Virus record (IMG/VR): IMGVR_UViG_3300040856_002958
Span: 1-22,885 of that record
Length of the DNA: 22,885 nucleotides
Reading direction: 5' to 3' (one strand)
DNA from: a virus
The position numbers and the translations under genes were made by a program. Under the pieces are notes generated by a model that was not told the origin of the DNA, did not search any database, and saw only the letters and a list, made by a program, of their open reading frames with translations. Below, piece by piece: positions 17,160 through 22,880 of the stretch. Each line of letters opens with the position of its first letter. Position 1 is the stretch's first letter.

Positions 17160-18185
17160 ATGGCATTCTTTAAAAAGGTAGCCTGCTTCACTGACATACA
17201 CTTCGGACTCAAGGGCAATTCAAGGGTACACAACGACGACTGTGAGGCTTTTGTTATATGGTTCATAGAGCAGGCAAAATTGCATGGGTGTGAGACCTGC
17301 ATATTCCTGGGAGACTGGCACCACCACAGGTCAGCGACCAATGTTTCAACAATGAACTACACGGTGTCAAACATAGAGAGACTAGGCCGGGCTTTCGAGA
17401 AAGTCTATGTAATAATGGGAAACCATGACCTGTACTACAGGGACAAAAGGGAGATCAACTCCATGGAGTACATCAGGAACATACCCAACATACACATCGT
17501 GAACGAGTGGTTGGTAGAAGATGATGTTGCTATACTTCCGTGGATCGTGGAAGACGAATACAAGAAGATCGAGAAAATGACACAGAAGTACGTGTTCGGA
17601 CATTTCGAACTGCCCTACTTCAAAATGAATGCCATGGTGGAGATGCCAGACACAGGAACCATACAGGCGGATCACTTCGCAGGATGTGGCCGGGTGTTCT
17701 CAGGGCACTTCCACAAGAGACAGTACATGAAGAACATCACCTACATGGGCAACGCCTTCCCACACAACTACGCGGATGCGGGAGATGACGAGCGTGGCAT
17801 GATGGTGTTGGAATATGACAAGGAACCAAAATTTATCAACTGGCCAGACATGCCAAGATACAGGACCATAAAAATCAGTGAACTACTAGCGGATCCCGAC
17901 AAGCACTTACTAACAAAGATGTATGTTAGAGTAACCTTGGACATAAAGATCTCATACGAAGAAGCCAATTTCATCAGGGAGACCTTCATAGACAAGTACC
18001 AATTAAGAGAACTACAACTGATACCGGAACAGATCGACAACGCACAGCAACCACAAGTGGAGATACAGAAGTTTGACAGCGTTGACCAGATCGTGATCAA
18101 ACAACTACAAGGGGTGGATTCAGAGGTGTATGACAAGAACATACTCACCGCGATCTACAATGATCTGGATGTCGAGAATCAGTAA
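17160..18185 (+). CDS. 47: gp47-like recombination endonuclease subunit (Mre11/SbcD family)
   Basis: 341-aa metallophosphoesterase, the nuclease half of the gp46/gp47 complex. In T4 this complex resects DNA ends for recombination-dependent replication and helps degrade host DNA. All phosphodiesterase motifs are visible: D12-I-H14, G51-D52 followed by W-H-H-H, G87-N-H-D90, G147-H148, and S181-G-H-F-H185. Length equals T4 gp47 (339 aa). It starts 3 nt after gp55, and its 3' end overlaps a small ORF in another frame. The last ~100 residues, lacking metal motifs, are the expected gp46-binding part. Confidence 0.95.
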   Translation: MAFFKKVACFTDIHFGLKGNSRVHNDDCEAFVIWFIEQAKLHGCETCIFLGDWHHHRSATNVSTMNYTVSNIERLGRAFEKVYVIMGNHDLYYRDKREINSMEYIRNIPNIHIVNEWLVEDDVAILPWIVEDEYKKIEKMTQKYVFGHFELPYFKMNAMVEMPDTGTIQADHFAGCGRVFSGHFHKRQYMKNITYMGNAFPHNYADAGDDERGMMVLEYDKEPKFINWPDMPRYRTIKISELLADPDKHLLTKMYVRVTLDIKISYEEANFIRETFIDKYQLRELQLIPEQIDNAQQPQVEIQKFDSVDQIVIKQLQGVDSEVYDKNILTAIYNDLDVENQ

Positions 18186-18333
18186 ACGTAAATTGATGAA
18201 AGCATTAAAAGGCGACCTGGAAATGCCCGTCAACAGGAAAACACTGTTGGACCAACTTGCGAAACCCGTTACGCAGGAAGAGTGGTTGAGAGGATACAGG
18301 GAATGGAGGAGGAAACAACTTGCTGACGATTAA
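18169..18333 (+). CDS. small basic protein of unknown function between gp47 and gp46
   Basis: About 54 aa from ATG 18169, overlapping the end of gp47 by 17 nt and the gp46 start by 14 nt. The C-terminal part (DQLAKPVTQEEWLRGYREWR RKQLADD) looks like a designed amphipathic, charged helix rather than random sequence. Other possible starts are ATG 18196 and ATG 18223; the latter has AAAAGG about 10 nt upstream, whereas 18169 has no clear RBS. T4 also has small genes between 47 and 46 (46.1, 46.2), so the position is not unusual. The Shine-Dalgarno for gp46 lies inside it, so its translation may tune gp46 expression. Function not recognised. Confidence 0.6.
   Translation: MSRISKRKLMKALKGDLEMPVNRKTLLDQLAKPVTQEEWLRGYREWRRKQLADD
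18305..18313 (+). promoter_or_regulatory. strong Shine-Dalgarno fixing a TTG start for gp46
   Basis: GGAGGAGGA followed by a 6-nt spacer and TTG at 18320. The next in-frame ATG is 12 codons downstream, within the conserved N-terminal beta strand (NFMSVGN), so the TTG start is preferred. Confidence 0.7.
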
Positions 18334-20095
18334 GGAAATAACGGTCAAGAACTTCATGAGCGTGGGCAACCAGGCACAGGCCATCGACTTCTCCAACAAA
18401 AGCCTGGTGCTGGTCATAGGTGAGAACATGGACCTAGGAGGCGACGACGCAGGAGCAAGGAATGGTACGGGTAAGACAACCATAATCAACGCACTGAGTT
18501 ACGTGTTCTACGGAGAGGCGCTAACAAACATCAGGAGAGACAACCTGGTCAACAAGACCAACGAGAAGGGCATGTTGGTCTCTGTCAAGTTCATCAAGAA
18601 CGGCGTGACCTACACCATAGAGCGTGGACGTAAACCACAGATATTCAGATTCTACGCCAACGACATAGAACAGAAGGCGGACAGCAACGAGGCACAAGGT
18701 GAGAACAGGGAGACGCAGGTGGAGATCAACAAATTATTGGGCATGACCCACGCCATGTTCAAAAACATAGTGGCCCTGAACACCTACACACAACCTTTCC
18801 TGAGCACAAAGCAGGCGGAACAGAGAGAGATCATAGAACAGTTGTTGGGTATCACTTTACTGTCGCAGAAAGCGGATCTACTGCGTGAGAAACAGAAGGC
18901 AACGAAACAGTTGCTGACGGAAGAGAAGATGAGATTAGATGCCAAGGTGTCGTCCAACGAGAAGATACAGGAGTCCATAGAGAGCCTCAAGATTAGATCC
19001 GCCGCATGGACAAAACAGAAGGCACAGGACATCGAGAGTTTCCGAGAGGCAATCGCGGAACTGGAGAAGGTGGACAGCGAGATCGAGATCGAGAAACACA
19101 AGAAACTGCAGAAACACAACGAGGCACAGACAGCGTTGCGCAACCTCATGAAGGAGAAGGCCTACCACGAGGATTCCTTGACCAAGGCGGAATCAACCGT
19201 AGAGAAGACCGAGAAGGACCTGGAGTTCGCGGAGGCGGCCAAGTGTCCCACCTGCGAACAGGCATTACACGACGACAAGCACGAACATCTCGTTGGTAAA
19301 CTGAAGACGAACCTGACAGAGAACAAAGAATACGCAGACAAACTGCGAAATGATCTTGCCCAGATACAACAGGGCATAGACGACATAGGAGATTTGGGAC
19401 AGGTTCCTGACACCTACTATGACACCATAGACGAGGCCTACAACCACAAGGGCACATTACAAGACCTCAAACGACAGTTGGAACACACCGAGAAGAAGGA
19501 AGACACCTACGCGGAACAGATCGCAGAACTGGAGAGCAAGGCCATACAGGAGGTGGATTACGAGAAGGCCAACGAACTGGAAGACCTACACAGGCACCAG
19601 GACTTCCTTTACAAATTACTGACAGCGAAAGACAGTTTCATAAGGACCAGGATCATAGAACAGAACCTGACCTATCTGAACCAGAGATTGGCGTTCTTCC
19701 TGGGCAAGGTCAAGCTACCACACACTGTGACATTCCAAGCGGATCTCAGTGTGAGGATCGAAGAACTGGGCAGGGAACTGGATTTTGACAACTTGAGCAG
19801 AGGGGAAAGAAACAGACTGATACTCAGCATGAGTTGGGCGTTCAGGGACGTGTGGGAAAGTCTTTATCAACAGATCAACCTGTTGTTCATAGACGAGCTG
19901 GTGGATGCTGGCATGGACATATCCGGTGTCGAGAGCTCCATGGCGGTGCTGAAGGACATGGCGAGGACGCAACAGAAAAACATATTCCTGATATCACACA
20001 AGGACGAATTGGTCAGCAGGGTCAACTCCGTGCTGAAAGTGGTCAAAGAGAATGGATTCACTAACTACGCAAATGACGTTGACATCATTGTTTAA
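18320..20095 (+). CDS. 46: gp46-like recombination endonuclease subunit (Rad50/SbcC family ATPase)
   Basis: 591-aa ABC/SMC-type ATPase partner of gp47; it bridges DNA ends and controls the nuclease with ATP. Domains in order: N-terminal lobe with Walker A (RNGTGKTT, K52); long coiled coil (about 180-480) rich in E, K and Q; zinc hook CPTC at C309/C312 in the middle; C-terminal lobe with the signature LSRGER (S493-E496) and Walker B LLFIDE (D525, E526). T4 gp46 is 560 aa. The start is a TTG at 18320, chosen because of the GGAGGAGGA upstream. The stop lies 11 nt inside the convergent gene on the other strand. Confidence 0.95.
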   Translation: MLTIKEITVKNFMSVGNQAQAIDFSNKSLVLVIGENMDLGGDDAGARNGTGKTTIINALSYVFYGEALTNIRRDNLVNKTNEKGMLVSVKFIKNGVTYTIERGRKPQIFRFYANDIEQKADSNEAQGENRETQVEINKLLGMTHAMFKNIVALNTYTQPFLSTKQAEQREIIEQLLGITLLSQKADLLREKQKATKQLLTEEKMRLDAKVSSNEKIQESIESLKIRSAAWTKQKAQDIESFREAIAELEKVDSEIEIEKHKKLQKHNEAQTALRNLMKEKAYHEDSLTKAESTVEKTEKDLEFAEAAKCPTCEQALHDDKHEHLVGKLKTNLTENKEYADKLRNDLAQIQQGIDDIGDLGQVPDTYYDTIDEAYNHKGTLQDLKRQLEHTEKKEDTYAEQIAELESKAIQEVDYEKANELEDLHRHQDFLYKLLTAKDSFIRTRIIEQNLTYLNQRLAFFLGKVKLPHTVTFQADLSVRIEELGRELDFDNLSRGERNRLILSMSWAFRDVWESLYQQINLLFIDELVDAGMDISGVESSMAVLKDMARTQQKNIFLISHKDELVSRVNSVLKVVKENGFTNYANDVDIIV

Positions 20096-20909
20096 TTTGT
20101 CCTAGTATCTTACCAATGGAATATAGTTTGTCATCGCTGTCCTTTAAAACATAACAGAACATACTATGTCGCAGATCTAGTTTATCACAAATTTTTTGTA
20201 TCTGTTTGGTATATTTTTGCCATCCATAATCCCTATCGAGGTTATCCATCATGAAGGCCCCGCAGGCTGTAGTCAATTCGTTGTACTTTTTTTGCGTACT
20301 GATCAAAGTGCAGGAGTCCATAGTACGTTGTCGTGACCAGCGTAGCCCAATCCTGTTCCAGGTGAAATTATACTTCGACATACTCATAGCAAATGACTTG
20401 ATATTAGGATGATCAAAATCAAAATTGAATCCCTTTGCGGCCGTTACCCATGCGCAATCAATATGTATGTCGATGTCCTTTTGTTCGCATTCCCTCAACA
20501 CTTCTTGCCATTCCGGCCTATCTCCATAAAAGTAGTTAGGAAGAGACACAATCAAGGGTATTCCCTCTTTTAATTTTCCCGGTGATGTTGGGTGTTTTCC
20601 CATAATCGAATAATAGGCATACTCTTTTGGTAATATCTGCACGTTCCACTTGTGTTTACTGACCAAACTTTCGATAAAATGTGTACACCCCATTATCACA
20701 TCCACGTTTGTAAATTTTGACCAACCTTGTAAATCGTTTACTTTCGTTGATTTGAACCAGGCACTGGCCTTGTCTATGAATTCGTTGTGTTCGATAGGTG
20801 TTTGAGGATCATTGTACCATTTTTCTTTGAGCGCTGTCAAATACGAGTCCTGCAAGGGAACCAATGTTTTATGCAAATCTGATATTTTTAGATTATCTAT
20901 ATCTAACAT
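20085..20909 (-). CDS. short fold-type-I PLP enzyme, aminotransferase-like
   Basis: 274-aa protein with the landmarks of class I/II aminotransferases. VDVIMGCTHFIESL (about 69-82) corresponds to the cofactor-phosphate loop (TxGxxxAI). IVSLPNYFYGDRPEW (120-134) corresponds to the NPxNPTG region. D151 in DIHIDCAW is the candidate pyridine-N Asp. SMSK (176-179) with K179 is the candidate Schiff-base lysine, followed by R186 in NRIGLRW. The usual length is 350-400 aa, so the C-terminal small domain is largely missing and the N-terminus differs. The product could be a minimal aminotransferase, another PLP enzyme, or a non-catalytic relative. Its start lies inside the upstream oxygenase gene (17-nt overlap, AGGAG 8 nt before ATG), so the two are co-translated. 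Its 3' end overlaps gp46 convergently. Confidence 0.55.
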   Translation of the reverse strand: MLDIDNLKISDLHKTLVPLQDSYLTALKEKWYNDPQTPIEHNEFIDKASAWFKSTKVNDLQGWSKFTNVDVIMGCTHFIESLVSKHKWNVQILPKEYAYYSIMGKHPTSPGKLKEGIPLIVSLPNYFYGDRPEWQEVLRECEQKDIDIHIDCAWVTAAKGFNFDFDHPNIKSFAMSMSKYNFTWNRIGLRWSRQRTMDSCTLISTQKKYNELTTACGAFMMDNLDRDYGWQKYTKQIQKICDKLDLRHSMFCYVLKDSDDKLYSIGKILGQIKQ

Positions 20910-21447
20910 AAACGCTTCTCCTATCCCCGTGCGTGGATTTGCTGGTAGTTCCGTGTAAACTGACGTTGTTGTTTAAAAGTGCGTATCCTGAATTCAACTT
21001 ATAATCGAAACTTTTAATAATGTTGTTTTCGCTGTCATACAGAGACGTCCCTACGTTGTTGTCACCTAAATAGATTTGTATGGCAAGTTTAATACTGGGA
21101 TCATCTGTGTGTGGTGGCAAATAATAACCGGCACTGTCTTTCCATATGTCAACGCTGTCCAACAACAAAGTTGTTTTGAATTTTTTTTCCAGAGCAGTGA
21201 TGATGGCCGTACGCATGAAAAAAATTTTCAATACCTTCATAATCTCACTTTCGTATAAAATTCTCTGCCTCGGCAAGTGTGCCTGCCGTTCGAGATCAAC
21301 ATGGTCAACATTCCTCAAATGCATAAGTTGATTTGGCACAGACTTACCAAAAAAATTTGCGTATTCTTGGTAAATTATGCCATTTAAATTTACCAAAGGT
21401 GCTTTTTCTATTGACCGGACCACATCTTGTGTGCTTAAATTAAACAT
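20893..21447 (-). CDS. 2-oxoglutarate/Fe(II)-dependent oxygenase
   Basis: 184-aa prolyl-4-hydroxylase-like oxygenase. The facial triad is visible: H113-x-D115 in PPHTDDP, distal H165 in SLHGTT, and R176/R177 in GDRRSVYVRY as the 2-oxoglutarate-binding Arg, 11-12 residues after the distal His. The preceding DSVDIWKDSAGYYL strand is also typical. Enzymes of this type are common in marine T4-like phages, but their substrates (protein, amino acid or nucleic acid) are mostly unknown. It lies directly upstream of, and overlaps, the PLP-type gene. The ATG sits in CATATG with no clear Shine-Dalgarno. A TATAAT-like box is only about 10 nt upstream of the ATG. Confidence 0.85.
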   Translation of the reverse strand: MFNLSTQDVVRSIEKAPLVNLNGIIYQEYANFFGKSVPNQLMHLRNVDHVDLERQAHLPRQRILYESEIMKVLKIFFMRTAIITALEKKFKTTLLLDSVDIWKDSAGYYLPPHTDDPSIKLAIQIYLGDNNVGTSLYDSENNIIKSFDYKLNSGYALLNNNVSLHGTTSKSTHGDRRSVYVRYR

Positions 21448-21493
21448 ATGTTAATTAATTATATCGTACGATAACGAAGGAAGGAAAAAACAT
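21448..21493. promoter_or_regulatory. short divergent promoter region with stacked palindromes
   Basis: 46 nt separate the divergent oxygenase and H1-like genes. The region has TTAATTAA (21451-21458), the perfect 12-mer TATCGTACGATA (21462-21473), and AACATATGTT (21443-21452) across the oxygenase start. On the minus strand TATAAT lies at 21458-21463. AAGGAAGGA (21477-21485) is the RBS of the plus-strand gene. The palindromes could be an operator shared by the two genes, or chance in AT-rich DNA. Confidence 0.4.
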
Positions 21494-21688
21494 ATGTCAA
21501 ATGAAACACATGAACAGATCATGACCGAGATACAGACTTACTCAGAAGAGAACGGTAAGTTCGTAGACAAGGGTGTGAAAGCATCTGCGACAAGGGCCAG
21601 GAAGGCACTTGCCAATCTCGCCAAATTGATCAAAGCAAGAAGAAAAGAGATTCAAGAAGTCAAAAACGCGGCCAAAGAGTCAGCGTAA
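21494..21688 (+). CDS. small Lys-rich histone H1/Hc1-like protein
   Basis: 64-aa basic protein. The second half (KFVDKGVKASATRARKALAN, then LAKLIKARRKEIQEVKNAAK) has the KA-T-RARKAL...K..RKEIQ pattern seen in bacterial Hc1-type histone-like proteins, and is predicted to be helical and positively charged. Likely role: non-specific DNA binding or nucleoid/genome compaction; this is inference. It has a strong RBS (AAGGAAGGA, 8 nt spacer) and its own downstream terminator. It is therefore a monocistronic unit on the strand opposite the genes on both sides. It could also be a small RNA-polymerase or nucleoid modulator. Confidence 0.65.
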   Translation: MSNETHEQIMTEIQTYSEENGKFVDKGVKASATRARKALANLAKLIKARRKEIQEVKNAAKESA

Positions 21689-21713
21689 TCGATCATTGGA
21701 TTTTGCAAAACCC

Positions 21714-21749
21714 AAAACCCCCGGCTGGCACCAGTTGGGGGTTTTTTTT
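21714..21749. terminator. strong intrinsic terminator, probably bidirectional
   Basis: AAAACCCCCGGCTG, loop GCAC, CAGTTGGGGG, then eight T: a 10-14 bp hairpin with two G-U pairs and a U tract, ending the H1-like gene 26 nt after its stop. In the minus direction the same hairpin is followed by TTTTGGGTTTT and lies at the very end of the amidinotransferase gene, whose TAA (21748-21750) overlaps the T run. It therefore probably ends both convergent transcripts. Confidence 0.88.
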
Positions 21750-22587
21750 AGAAATAATTTTCAAGTACGCCTTCCCTGTACAAGTCTTGCGTCATACAAT
21801 GAATGCCATTGTCCCAGAACGCTTTATGACGCAATTCACACACTACCGGTTCGATGCCGTGTTTTTGTAAAAAATCAAACATCACATCACTTACATCGGT
21901 CGTGAAGCAAGTGTTTTCATCTATGGACAGTATGTTTACGTCATAGTTGCTTTCTTCATGATTGCCTCCCCACATGTGCTTTATAGGCGCATATTTCCTA
22001 ACAGGGTCAAGATAACATATATCCCATCCTGGATATATCTCTTCCAATTCAGGTAAATCACGACTGGCAACTATGACACCGGGTTTCAATATACTGTACA
22101 CCCCGTCCATGTGCCAACCGTATCTAGTAATAGAAACCCTGTACTCATTTTCATGTAACCATTTTTTTATGGATCTTTCACTTTCAGGATGGACGTGATT
22201 GCTGATATCCCAATGCAGATGATTGCCACACCTTACCATGTTGCCACTGGATATGTCATTGTCCAGATACCATTTAATCCGACCCTTATCGATCTTAGAA
22301 AGTATGTCCTTGTAGCCAGCTATCACCTTCCCGACCAAGAGATTTTCACCGATTGCTACGAAATAATCCCTGGGTGATATGGGCGGGCGAGAATCTTTTT
22401 TTTCCACGTTTGGTCTGTAACAAATCACTCCCGCTGACGTGAGTTTATCAACTAGCGCATCTAGGTCTTCATTGGTGTCTTCCATGATCTTTTTCAATGA
22501 ATCACCGACATCCTTTGGGTCATGAGCCCTACCAACAATGCAGTGCTTCAAAGGATGGAATGTTGCGAAGCCTTTAACCGGTATCAT
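21748..22587 (-). CDS. amidinotransferase-family enzyme (glycine/arginine amidinotransferase-like)
   Basis: 279-aa member of the amidinotransferase/guanidino-modifying superfamily. Visible motifs: SPRD (71-74) near the N-terminal third; WHMDG with H159 and D161, the catalytic His motif; and GIHCMTQDLYREG with C264, the nucleophilic Cys that forms the amidino-enzyme intermediate. In known members (AGAT, StrB) arginine donates its amidino group to an amine such as glycine or an aminocyclitol; related enzymes hydrolyse arginine. The acceptor here cannot be told. It is shorter than human AGAT (423 aa) but close to bacterial and hydrolase-type members. Start ATG 22587 overlaps the upstream gene stop (ATGA), with AAAGGA upstream. 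The stop overlaps the shared terminator. Confidence 0.8.
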   Translation of the reverse strand: MIPVKGFATFHPLKHCIVGRAHDPKDVGDSLKKIMEDTNEDLDALVDKLTSAGVICYRPNVEKKDSRPPISPRDYFVAIGENLLVGKVIAGYKDILSKIDKGRIKWYLDNDISSGNMVRCGNHLHWDISNHVHPESERSIKKWLHENEYRVSITRYGWHMDGVYSILKPGVIVASRDLPELEEIYPGWDICYLDPVRKYAPIKHMWGGNHEESNYDVNILSIDENTCFTTDVSDVMFDFLQKHGIEPVVCELRHKAFWDNGIHCMTQDLYREGVLENYF

Positions 22588-22880
22588 TTTTTTATTATTC
22601 CTTTACCATGAACACGCACACGGATATGTCCGTTGTAGTAATCGTTCGATTCTAAAACTTTCCTAGCGAACTGTTCCCGGGCTTCGATGTATGACAGTTC
22701 TGCCTTGGAGTAGCAATAGAACAGTATCTCCCTTGTGAATTTTTCTTTGCCCAATTTCATGACATCCGCTGTGAGTTCGTCACTAGAACCATAATAGTCC
22801 TGCCAGTCCGAATCCACTTTGTACCTACGCTTGTTCTTGCGTCCTTTCAGCGGTGGTCTGCTCCTTTTGAATCTCGCCAA
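22584..22880 (-). CDS. SegE/GIY-YIG-like protein, possibly 5'-partial
   Basis: 98 aa from a TTG at 22880; the frame stays open to the right edge, so the true start may lie outside. The segment DWQDYYGSSDELTADVMKLG KEKFTREILFYCYSKAEL followed by SYIEAREQF has the pattern (YYGSS..L...I..xGKENF.R.IL..C.S..EL...E) of T4 Seg-type GIY-YIG endonucleases and their degenerate phage relatives. The first GIY motif is not evident in the visible part, so catalysis is doubtful. The N-terminus is very basic (RFKRSRPPLKGRKNKRRYK), fitting nucleic-acid binding. It is translationally coupled to the amidinotransferase by ATGA. Confidence 0.5.
   Translation of the reverse strand: MARFKRSRPPLKGRKNKRRYKVDSDWQDYYGSSDELTADVMKLGKEKFTREILFYCYSKAELSYIEAREQFARKVLESNDYYNGHIRVRVHGKGIIKK

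What the first reader, a model, noticed from the sequence alone, without database searches (positions are those of the whole stretch)
20085..22587. Three small-molecule-type enzymes side by side in a T4-like phage accessory island
Seen: an amidinotransferase-family protein (Cys-264, His-159), a 2-oxoglutarate/Fe(II) oxygenase (H113, D115, H165, R176), and a short PLP fold-type-I protein (SMSK K179, D151) lie within 2.5 kb, all on the minus strand. The oxygenase and PLP genes overlap by 17 nt. Known: bacterial pathways for unusual guanidino amino acids and natural products combine amidinotransferases, arginine or amino-acid hydroxylases and PLP enzymes. Inference: the phage may make or decorate something (a guanidino metabolite, a modified nucleotide, or a protein side chain), or rewire arginine/nitrogen use in the host. 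I do not know this set as a described phage system.
Basis: partly seen in the sequence, partly recalled or inferred. Interest (0 to 1): 0.75.

Follow-up and report, generated by a model that had tools for sequence, protein, structure and literature searches.

The report
Phage module of linked tailoring enzymes
Many uncultured phages carry a compact vitamin-B6-type enzyme that nearly always sits beside an iron oxygenase and often beside a relative of arginine amidinotransferases, which suggests that they build an unusual nitrogen-rich chemical group during infection; what it decorates is unknown.

Summary
The three genes are real, where stated, with the named active-site residues conserved. They are not one clean operon: an opposite-strand histone-H1-like gene and a hairpin separate the amidinotransferase relative (ATF) from the overlapping oxygenase-PLP pair (OXY-PLP). 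Co-occurrence is far beyond chance: of 34 non-redundant PLP loci with enough flank, 32 have OXY (29) or ATF (18) within 3 kb, 15 both; OXY lies within 3 kb of PLP in 22 of the 23 larger records that have one (about 4 expected). Orders and strands vary, on gp46/47, gp41/primase and a few other backbones. The core is PLP plus OXY; ATF is an optional third partner, common elsewhere in phages (PLP near 4 of 44 ATF clusters). PLP is a reduced class-I aminotransferase fold, essentially viral. OXY is nearest in fold to PasI; its relative PolD is proposed to work before a PLP aminotransferase. Best reading: oxidise to a carbonyl, transaminate, often amidinate to a guanidine. The target is unknown; a sugar or nucleotide-sugar is weakly favoured, DNA or protein not excluded. 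My literature searches found no description. No activity has been shown.

The parts
20085..20909 (-). PLP: compact fold-type-I (class I/II aminotransferase-like) protein, 274 aa; K179 (putative Schiff-base Lys), D151, H149, T76, R190 invariant
20893..21447 (-). OXY: 2-oxoglutarate/Fe(II) oxygenase-like protein, 184 aa; H113-x-D115...H165...R176; overlaps PLP by 17 nt
21494..21688 (+). Histone-H1-like 64-aa protein (PF07432) on the opposite strand between ATF and OXY; probably a backbone gene, as L007 and L008 have it near gp46 and show no PLP in the stretch held
21714..21745 (.). Hairpin between ATF and the H1-like gene, terminator-like; suggests that ATF is a separate transcription unit from OXY-PLP (inferred)
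   Evidence: the pattern scan did not list it
21748..22587 (-). ATF: AGAT-like (pentein) amidinotransferase relative, 279 aa; D74, H159, D161, C264 kept, AGAT Asp254 position is Ser113
22584..22880 (-). segE-like GIY-YIG endonuclease gene, 4-nt overlap with ATF, cut by the window edge; borders the variable site
18320..20095 (+). gp46-like (SbcC-like) recombination nuclease subunit, convergent with PLP; backbone
17160..18185 (+). gp47-like (SbcD-like) subunit; backbone

Best explanation
A mobile tailoring module of (mostly uncultured) tailed phages. Shown: three conserved protein families with their cofactor or catalytic residues kept, purifying selection on the window's copies, and strong non-random linkage of PLP with OXY and/or ATF in several gene orders and genome backbones. 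Inferred: OXY oxidises a carbon of a small or polymer-bound substrate to a carbonyl (directly or through a hydroxyl), the compact PLP protein transaminates that carbonyl to an amine, and, in about half of the loci, ATF moves the amidino group of arginine onto that amine to give a guanidine. Favoured target (weakly): a phage-directed sugar or nucleotide-sugar that ends on a virion or host-surface glycoconjugate; radical SAM proteins, common in the same genomes, may supply other oxidation steps.
For: Linkage: 32 of 34 loci; 39 of 41 in 11 partner arrangements; 22 of 23 records with OXY have it within 3 kb of PLP against 4.1 expected, ignoring shared ancestry; no OXY or ATF at 3-7.5 kb in 20 large loci. 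gp46 is 70-94% identical pairwise (94% is the ceiling set by de-duplication at 95%) while PLP is 36-95%, OXY 31-97%, ATF 23-96%: parts vary yet stay together. Chemistry by precedent: OXY's best fold match is PasI (Z 18.6, rmsd 2.6, 177 aligned); PolD follows (Z 17.4, rmsd 2.6, 172 aligned), second family in Foldseek's list; in polyoxin, PolD/PolK are proposed to make a keto acid that the PLP aminotransferase PolI aminates (PMC5365060, passages). The PLP model is class-I-like over residues 10-274 (Z 16.9, rmsd 4.0, 257 aligned). ATF aligns with AGAT, SxtG, HsvA, StrB1. Sugar-type neighbours of relatives: KdsA/KdsB beside the S-SCSM2R ATF, whose next gene is a 2OG oxygenase matching the OXY profile at 5.6e-6; UGDH and a DegT aminotransferase beside the two ATFs of L126; a nucleotide-diphospho-sugar transferase in F379; carbamoyltransferase, an annotated aminoarabinose aminotransferase, 2OG-type genes and tail fibres around the PLP relative of phage Mosig.
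Against: No activity, substrate or product is shown for any member. By VIA, OGFOD1 (Z 17.6) stands one unit below PasI and is tied with PolD, which points to protein substrates as well. PLP matches are tied among aminotransferases, C-S lyases and arginine oxidases MppP/RohP, and Foldseek ranks a decarboxylase first, so transamination is not singled out; the C-terminal Arg of aminotransferases seems absent. AGAT Asp254 is Ser in the window ATF. Sugar genes are not universal in PLP records: epimerase over cut-off 6 of 16, carbamoyltransferase 4 of 16, DegT 4 of 16, and the records may be fragments. The Mosig relative is remote (E 1.3e-10), and no ORF of that stretch matches the ATF or OXY profile at E 0.01.
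Confidence: 0.38

Rival explanations
1. DNA base hypermodification: OXY oxidises a base substituent, PLP aminates it and ATF caps it with a guanidine, protecting phage DNA.
For: On both main backbones the module lies among replication/recombination genes (gp46/47, or gp41-like helicase and primase). ATF relatives, one 61% identical (L109), sit with IMPDH-, phosphoribosyltransferase-, purine-permease- or Vut_1- and QueE-like genes, a purine or 7-deazapurine setting: QueE-like in 5 of 44 ATF clusters. OXY's best fold matches act on nucleoside-antibiotic intermediates.
Against: No thymidylate-synthase family match in 16 of 16 PLP records, which may be fragments. QueC matches in 5 of 16 are partial and weak. 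None of the ATF clusters with IMPDH- or QueE-like neighbours has PLP within 3 kb.
Confidence: 0.17
2. Protein or peptide side-chain modification (virion protein, ribosomal protein or a RiPP-like peptide).
For: OXY resembles OGFOD1/Tpa1 and bacterial prolyl hydroxylases almost as well as PasI. Radical SAM matches in 14 of 16 PLP records, up to 8 per record; SPASM matches below cut-off in two radical SAM examples. Tail-fibre genes adjoin the Mosig cluster. The aminotransferase C-terminal Arg seems lost, as expected if the substrate has no free alpha-carboxylate.
Against: No precursor peptide was identified, though none was searched for systematically; d15, the unknown gene within 3 kb of PLP in 15 of 34 loci, has no convincing Pfam or PHROG match and was not detected beside PLP in the gp46-type loci.
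Confidence: 0.17
3. Free amino-acid or guanidino metabolism (an auxiliary metabolic pathway around arginine), one of the first reader's options.
For: AGAT relatives use arginine; MppP/RohP arginine oxidases are among the tied PLP matches. A viral guanidinoacetate methyltransferase has been read as creatine biosynthesis in ocean viruses (PMC11360552, passages).
Against: No arginine or polyamine gene appeared among the recurrent neighbours that I annotated; many neighbours were not annotated. The apparent loss of the alpha-carboxylate Arg argues against a plain amino-acid aminotransferase.
Confidence: 0.1
4. Cargo drift: unrelated accessory genes gathered at an insertion hotspot without working together.
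For: The site beside gp46 is variable; module genes have lower G+C than core genes in 46 of 50 gp46-type and 41 of 43 gp41-type loci, redundant loci included.
Against: The same association recurs on different backbones, in different orders and strands, and OXY is close to PLP in 22 of 23 records.
Confidence: 0.04

Closest known systems
Polyoxin/nikkomycin-type 2OG oxygenase plus PLP aminotransferase step (PolD/PolK then PolI; also PasI)
   Same: OXY's best fold matches include PasI (first) and PolD; paired 2OG oxygenase and PLP enzyme, with radical SAM genes in the same genomes. Proposed pathway order from PMC5365060 (passages).
   Different: PLP here is a 274-aa viral family; an amidinotransferase relative is often added; no octosyl-acid pathway was looked for or seen; substrate unknown.
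Campylobacter phage CP220/CPt10/F379 cluster of radical SAM proteins with a putative glycine amidinotransferase
   Same: Homologous ATF (A3 profile E 8.3e-24 in F379) in an accessory cluster; published for CP220/CPt10 as an interchangeable module of unknown function (PMC2853527, passages).
   Different: No PLP or OXY profile match at E 0.01 in the F379 stretch examined; radical SAM genes are beside ATF there, none was seen in the part of the window searched.
Streptidine-type amination and amidination (aminotransferase then StrB1)
   Same: ATF profile matches StrB1 1bwd at E 7.1e-20; in L126 a DegT aminotransferase gene adjoins an ATF gene, convergently. The streptidine pathway itself is recalled, not from a call.
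   Different: The window's PLP protein gave no DegT-family match; no cyclitol genes were looked for or seen.
Pelagibacter phage Mosig EXVC030M aminotransferase Mosig_00079
   Same: Remote relative of the PLP family (A1 profile E 1.3e-10), near Asp_Arg_Hydrox, carbamoyltransferase, MoaA-like and tail-fibre genes.
   Different: Remote, has an NRINI C-terminal motif, and no ATF- or OXY-profile match in the 18.7-kb stretch.
L-arginine:glycine amidinotransferase (AGAT), SxtG, HsvA
   Same: Profile homology at E about 1e-26; the AGAT Asp170, His303, Asp305 and Cys407 positions are kept (residues counted in the alignment; conservation).
   Different: Ser113 at the AGAT Asp254 position; the window protein, 279 aa, is about 100 residues shorter than the solved chains.

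Membership tests
2OG/Fe(II) oxygenase superfamily (OXY) | His-x-Asp...His metal triad and 2OG-binding Arg | tested here: met
   H113, D115, H165, R176 invariant in 18 of 18; their roles are recalled from the superfamily motif
2OG/Fe(II) oxygenase superfamily (OXY) | double-stranded beta-helix fold | tested here: met
   AF2 pLDDT 92.5; Foldseek PasI 3.5e-8, VIA Z 18.6
2OG/Fe(II) oxygenase superfamily (OXY) | 2OG- and Fe-dependent turnover | not testable with these tools
   needs an assay
PLP fold-type I, class I/II aminotransferase (PLP) | fold | tested here: met
   AF2 pLDDT 92; VIA Z 16.9, 257 residues aligned
PLP fold-type I, class I/II aminotransferase (PLP) | Schiff-base Lys and Asp facing the pyridine nitrogen | tested here: met
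   K179 and D151 invariant in 21 of 21; roles assigned by motif, not by a ligand-bound model
PLP fold-type I, class I/II aminotransferase (PLP) | alpha-carboxylate-binding Arg in the C-terminal small domain (role recalled) | tested here: inconclusive
   no Arg after R226 among the invariant or nearly invariant columns of 21 sequences, while L157, L154, L128 and Mosig_00079 have an Arg-containing C-terminal motif; no structure-based alignment was read at this position
PLP fold-type I, class I/II aminotransferase (PLP) | transaminase activity | not testable with these tools
   fold matches are tied with lyases and include a decarboxylase
AGAT-type amidinotransferase (ATF) | sequence homology over most of the domain | tested here: met
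   profile E 1.1e-26 (SxtG) to 7.1e-20 (StrB1), in two or more stretches
AGAT-type amidinotransferase (ATF) | catalytic Cys, His-x-Asp and the Asp170-type substrate Asp | tested here: met
   C264, H159, D161 each in 111 of 113, D74 in 109 of 113 distinct sequences
AGAT-type amidinotransferase (ATF) | Asp254 of the AGAT active site (role recalled) | tested here: not met
   window Ser113 by the alignment; Asp in 21 of 113 phage ATFs, 11 of 13 in gp41-type PLP loci and 1 of 24 in gp46-type. Hence filed as an AGAT-like relative, not as an AGAT
AGAT-type amidinotransferase (ATF) | amidino transfer from arginine | not testable with these tools
   needs an assay
Campylobacter phage CP220-type cluster | about five radical SAM genes in one cluster with the amidinotransferase | tested here: inconclusive
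   no radical SAM match among the 10 window ORFs searched; the other window ORFs were not searched and the window is a 22.9-kb fragment. Separate five-gene radical SAM clusters occur in related records (L182-L185)

The most novel reading that the evidence does not exclude
Phages possess a dedicated route, not known in any virus, that installs a guanidino (arginine-like, cationic) group by oxidising an unactivated carbon, aminating it with a minimal aminotransferase and amidinating the amine, so as to decorate phage DNA or virion/host-surface glycans; the apparent loss of the carboxylate-binding Arg would mark an aminotransferase that works on a polymer-bound or nucleotide-bound carbonyl.
Probability: 0.2. 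Interest if true: 0.85.

Novelty: new variant of a known kind. Interest (0 to 1): 0.6.

Why it matters
It turns three obscure phage genes into a testable pathway with a proposed enzyme order, and defines an essentially viral family of very small aminotransferase-fold proteins. If the product is a guanidinylated sugar or base, it would be a new kind of viral chemical decoration and a candidate for defence evasion or receptor exclusion; it would also give a lead for the unexplained radical SAM/amidinotransferase clusters of Campylobacter phages.

Tried and rejected
Neighbour maps from a longest-ORF-first picker wrongly showed no oxygenase in L005, L006, L022, L024, L026, L027 and L053; tblastn found a full-length match in each, and later counts use all ORFs.

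Late-promoter motif TATAAATA: 9 matches with up to one mismatch against 8.75 expected, so no claim on timing. Sigma-70-like sites were at chance (13 against 12.7) and terminator-like ones slightly above (11 against 7.1, sd 3.1).

Radical SAM as a stand-in for OXY: of the 34 loci, 3 of 5 without OXY and 7 of 29 with OXY have a radical SAM gene within 3 kb (split counted by eye; the call prints the total of 10): too few to conclude.

PLP and OXY profiles matched no PDB sequence at E up to 1. No dimer, ligand-bound or ATF model was made.

Tree agreement: identity matrices of PLP, OXY, ATF and gp46 correlate with each other (r 0.38-0.66), so module genes follow the backbone in part; PLP-OXY (0.61) is hardly above PLP-gp46 (0.57), which does not by itself show co-evolution.

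Thymidylate synthase (PF00303): 0 of 16 PLP records. d15 and a gp41-type PLP had no match among phage isolates at E 0.01; a radical SAM protein of L182 matched two Vibrio phages only, at 24.8% identity.
Full report
WHAT IS THERE. ATF overlaps a segE-like GIY-YIG gene that is cut by the window edge. On the other side lie gp46/gp47-like genes, a late sigma factor and a baseplate gene. G+C drops from about 0.5 to 0.40 over the island.

FAMILY ASSIGNMENT. Pfam sees the proteins only weakly: Pyridoxal_deC E 0.059 for PLP, ADI E 0.019 for ATF, nothing for OXY. ATF matches phrog_25854, of unknown function, at 2.9e-13. A profile of 21 ATF sequences matches SxtG, AGAT, HsvA and StrB1 at E 1.1e-26 to 7.1e-20. 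PLP and OXY profiles match no PDB sequence, but both fold confidently: PLP pLDDT 92, OXY 92.5. PLP aligns over residues 10-274 with class I/II aminotransferase-fold enzymes (Z 16.9, rmsd 4.0, 257 aligned with 4dgt); aminotransferases, C-S lyases and the arginine oxidases MppP/RohP are tied, and Foldseek ranks L-threonine-O-3-phosphate decarboxylase first at 5e-9. The 50 rows have target lengths of 353-424 residues, so a 274-aa member is unusually small. OXY is nearest to PasI (Z 18.6, rmsd 2.6, 177 aligned); OGFOD1 (17.6, rmsd 2.5, 174 aligned) and PolD (17.4, rmsd 2.6, 172 aligned) follow and are tied with each other; in Foldseek's order PasI and PolD come first and OGFOD1 is at rank 11.

ACTIVE SITES. 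K179 and D151 of PLP are invariant in 21 of 21. H113, D115, H165 and R176 of OXY are invariant in 18 of 18. In 113 distinct phage ATFs, H159, D161 and C264 are each kept in 111 and D74 in 109. The position of AGAT Asp254 is Ser113 in the window; it is Asp in 21 of 113, in 11 of 13 ATFs beside PLP in gp41-type loci but in 1 of 24 in gp46-type loci. The window-type PLP family has no conserved Arg after R226, while four divergent relatives (L157, L154, L128, Mosig_00079) have an NRIN- or IRVC-like C-terminal motif; I read this, from recalled aminotransferase biology, as loss of the alpha-carboxylate Arg.

DISTRIBUTION. The isolate-phage collection holds three records with an ATF match and none with OXY or the window's PLP at E 1e-5. 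A scan of bacterial and archaeal genomes with the PLP alignment gave one confirmed locus of 44 pattern matches, L058, a contig in a Pelagibacter MAG with a phage-like neighbourhood. Viral contigs gave 131 PLP relatives, of which 80 were returned. These scans rest on short peptide patterns and can miss distant relatives. The best viral-structure match is one uncultured phage protein (32% identity, TM 0.88).

CO-OCCURRENCE. Of 106 PLP loci (several from the same contig), 56 clusters remain at 90% identity; 34 have at least 2.5 kb on both sides. Of these 34, 29 have OXY, 18 ATF, 15 both and 32 at least one within 3 kb; the exceptions are L041 and L073. In the 20 loci with 7.5 kb or more on both sides there is no OXY or ATF at 3-7.5 kb. 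A stricter PLP cut gives 53 clusters, 41 with 2-kb flanks, 39 of these with a partner, in 13 arrangement classes, 11 of them with a partner: ATF-OXY-PLP, OXY-ATF-PLP, PLP-ATF-OXY, OXY-PLP-ATF, ATF-PLP with OXY on the other strand, and others, on gp46/47 or gp41/primase backbones and on neither. I picked 24 records of 13-210 kb behind these loci: one has no OXY match; in 22 of the other 23 it lies within 3 kb of PLP against 4.1 expected (from; the nominal probability of 2e-17 ignores shared ancestry). The odd one, G008, has only a weak match (2.4e-6) 39 kb away. ATF occurs anywhere in 12 of these 24 records, in G009 only weakly and 60 kb from PLP. The reverse view is asymmetric: of 44 ATF clusters with flanks, from the best 80 of at least 576 ATF loci, 4 have PLP and 3 OXY within 3 kb; 12 have a radical SAM gene, 12 a DUF6614 gene and 5 a QueE-like gene. 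So ATF is a widespread phage enzyme that PLP-OXY borrows.

EVOLUTION. In gp46-type loci, de-duplicated at 95% gp46 identity, gp46 is 70-94% identical pairwise, PLP 36-95%, OXY 31-97% and ATF 23-96% (24 loci, 14 with ATF). Module genes have lower G+C than core genes in 46 of 50 gp46-type and 41 of 43 gp41-type loci, redundant loci included. I read this as an exchangeable cassette; the window's copies are under purifying selection (PLP dN 0.058, dS 0.389 against L018). The identity matrices also track gp46 in part.

WHAT SURROUNDS RELATIVES. S-SCSM2R: ATF directly after KdsB/KdsA, with glycosyltransferase and carbohydrate-phosphorylase genes a few genes away, and before two annotated 2OG oxygenases, the first of which matches the OXY profile at 5.6e-6. 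L126: two ATFs, one beside a UGDH gene, the other convergent with a DegT aminotransferase gene. L109-L118 and L122: IMPDH-, PRTase-, Vut_1- or purine-permease-, cupin- and QueE-like genes beside ATF, not each gene in each locus (QueE by my reading of the sequence, Pfam gives only a weak radical SAM match). L154 and L157: seven radical SAM genes each by profile, ATF and a divergent PLP. Campylobacter phage F379: six annotated radical SAM genes in the stretch, five within about 5 kb of ATF, and a nucleotide-diphospho-sugar transferase; the like cluster of CP220/CPt10 was described as an interchangeable module of unknown function (PMC2853527, passages). Mosig: PLP relative among carbamoyltransferase, MoaA-like, aminoarabinose-aminotransferase, Asp_Arg_Hydrox, taurine-dioxygenase and tail-fibre annotations. 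Of 16 PLP records, 14 have radical SAM matches (13 over cut-off, up to 8 per record), 6 epimerase over cut-off, 4 carbamoyltransferase, 4 DegT, 5 partial QueC matches, 0 thymidylate synthase; records G001-G003 and G007 hold a cluster of five radical SAM genes. Pelagimyophage hypervariable regions with glycosyltransferases, and radical SAM cassettes in one pair, have been described and read as host-surface modification (PMC7029224, passages).

HOW IT MOST LIKELY WORKS. The chemistry that fits all three classes is oxidise, aminate, amidinate. The first two steps have a precedent among the nearest structural relatives of OXY: in polyoxin, PolD/PolK are proposed to produce a keto acid that PolI aminates (PMC5365060, passages). 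The third has a precedent in streptidine-type pathways (recalled) and a parallel in L126, where a DegT aminotransferase gene adjoins ATF. Linkage and homology are shown; reactions, their order and the target are inferred. Sugar-type neighbours of relatives in several phage settings make a sugar or nucleotide-sugar substrate my first choice, with DNA and protein modification close behind.

NOVELTY. I found no description of this module in the listings of searches, which cover open-licence PMC only; I opened passages of five papers, and in a sixth, the Mosig genome announcement, none of my terms occurred. The parts are known kinds; the combination, the minimal PLP family and its viral restriction are new to me. 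I rate it a new variant of a known kind, interest 0.6.

Noticed in passing
L182 (G001), L183 (G002), L184 (G003), L185 (G007): Five clustered radical SAM genes, with a carbamoyltransferase gene nearby in all four records, in gp46-type phages that carry the module elsewhere.
   Followed up: partly
L042:7505-7990 and the other loci with d15: d15, an about 160-aa protein without a convincing Pfam or PHROG match, within 3 kb of and mostly directly beside PLP in 15 of 34 non-redundant loci, not detected beside PLP in the gp46-type loci.
   Followed up: partly
L109, L111-L118, L122: ATF relatives beside IMPDH-, PRTase-, Vut_1- or purine-permease-, cupin- and QueE-like genes: a possible 7-deazapurine setting for phage amidinotransferase relatives.
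   Followed up: partly
ATF loci: DUF6614-like proteins recur near ATF in 12 of 44 non-redundant ATF clusters.
   Followed up: no
L154 and L157: Very dense radical SAM clusters (seven by profile in each) with ATF and a divergent PLP; L157 also has, by eye, 2OG-oxygenase-like proteins that Pfam does not recognise.
   Followed up: partly
window 21494-21688: Histone-H1-like protein (PF07432); relatives lie near gp46 also in L007 and L008, where no PLP was seen.
   Followed up: no
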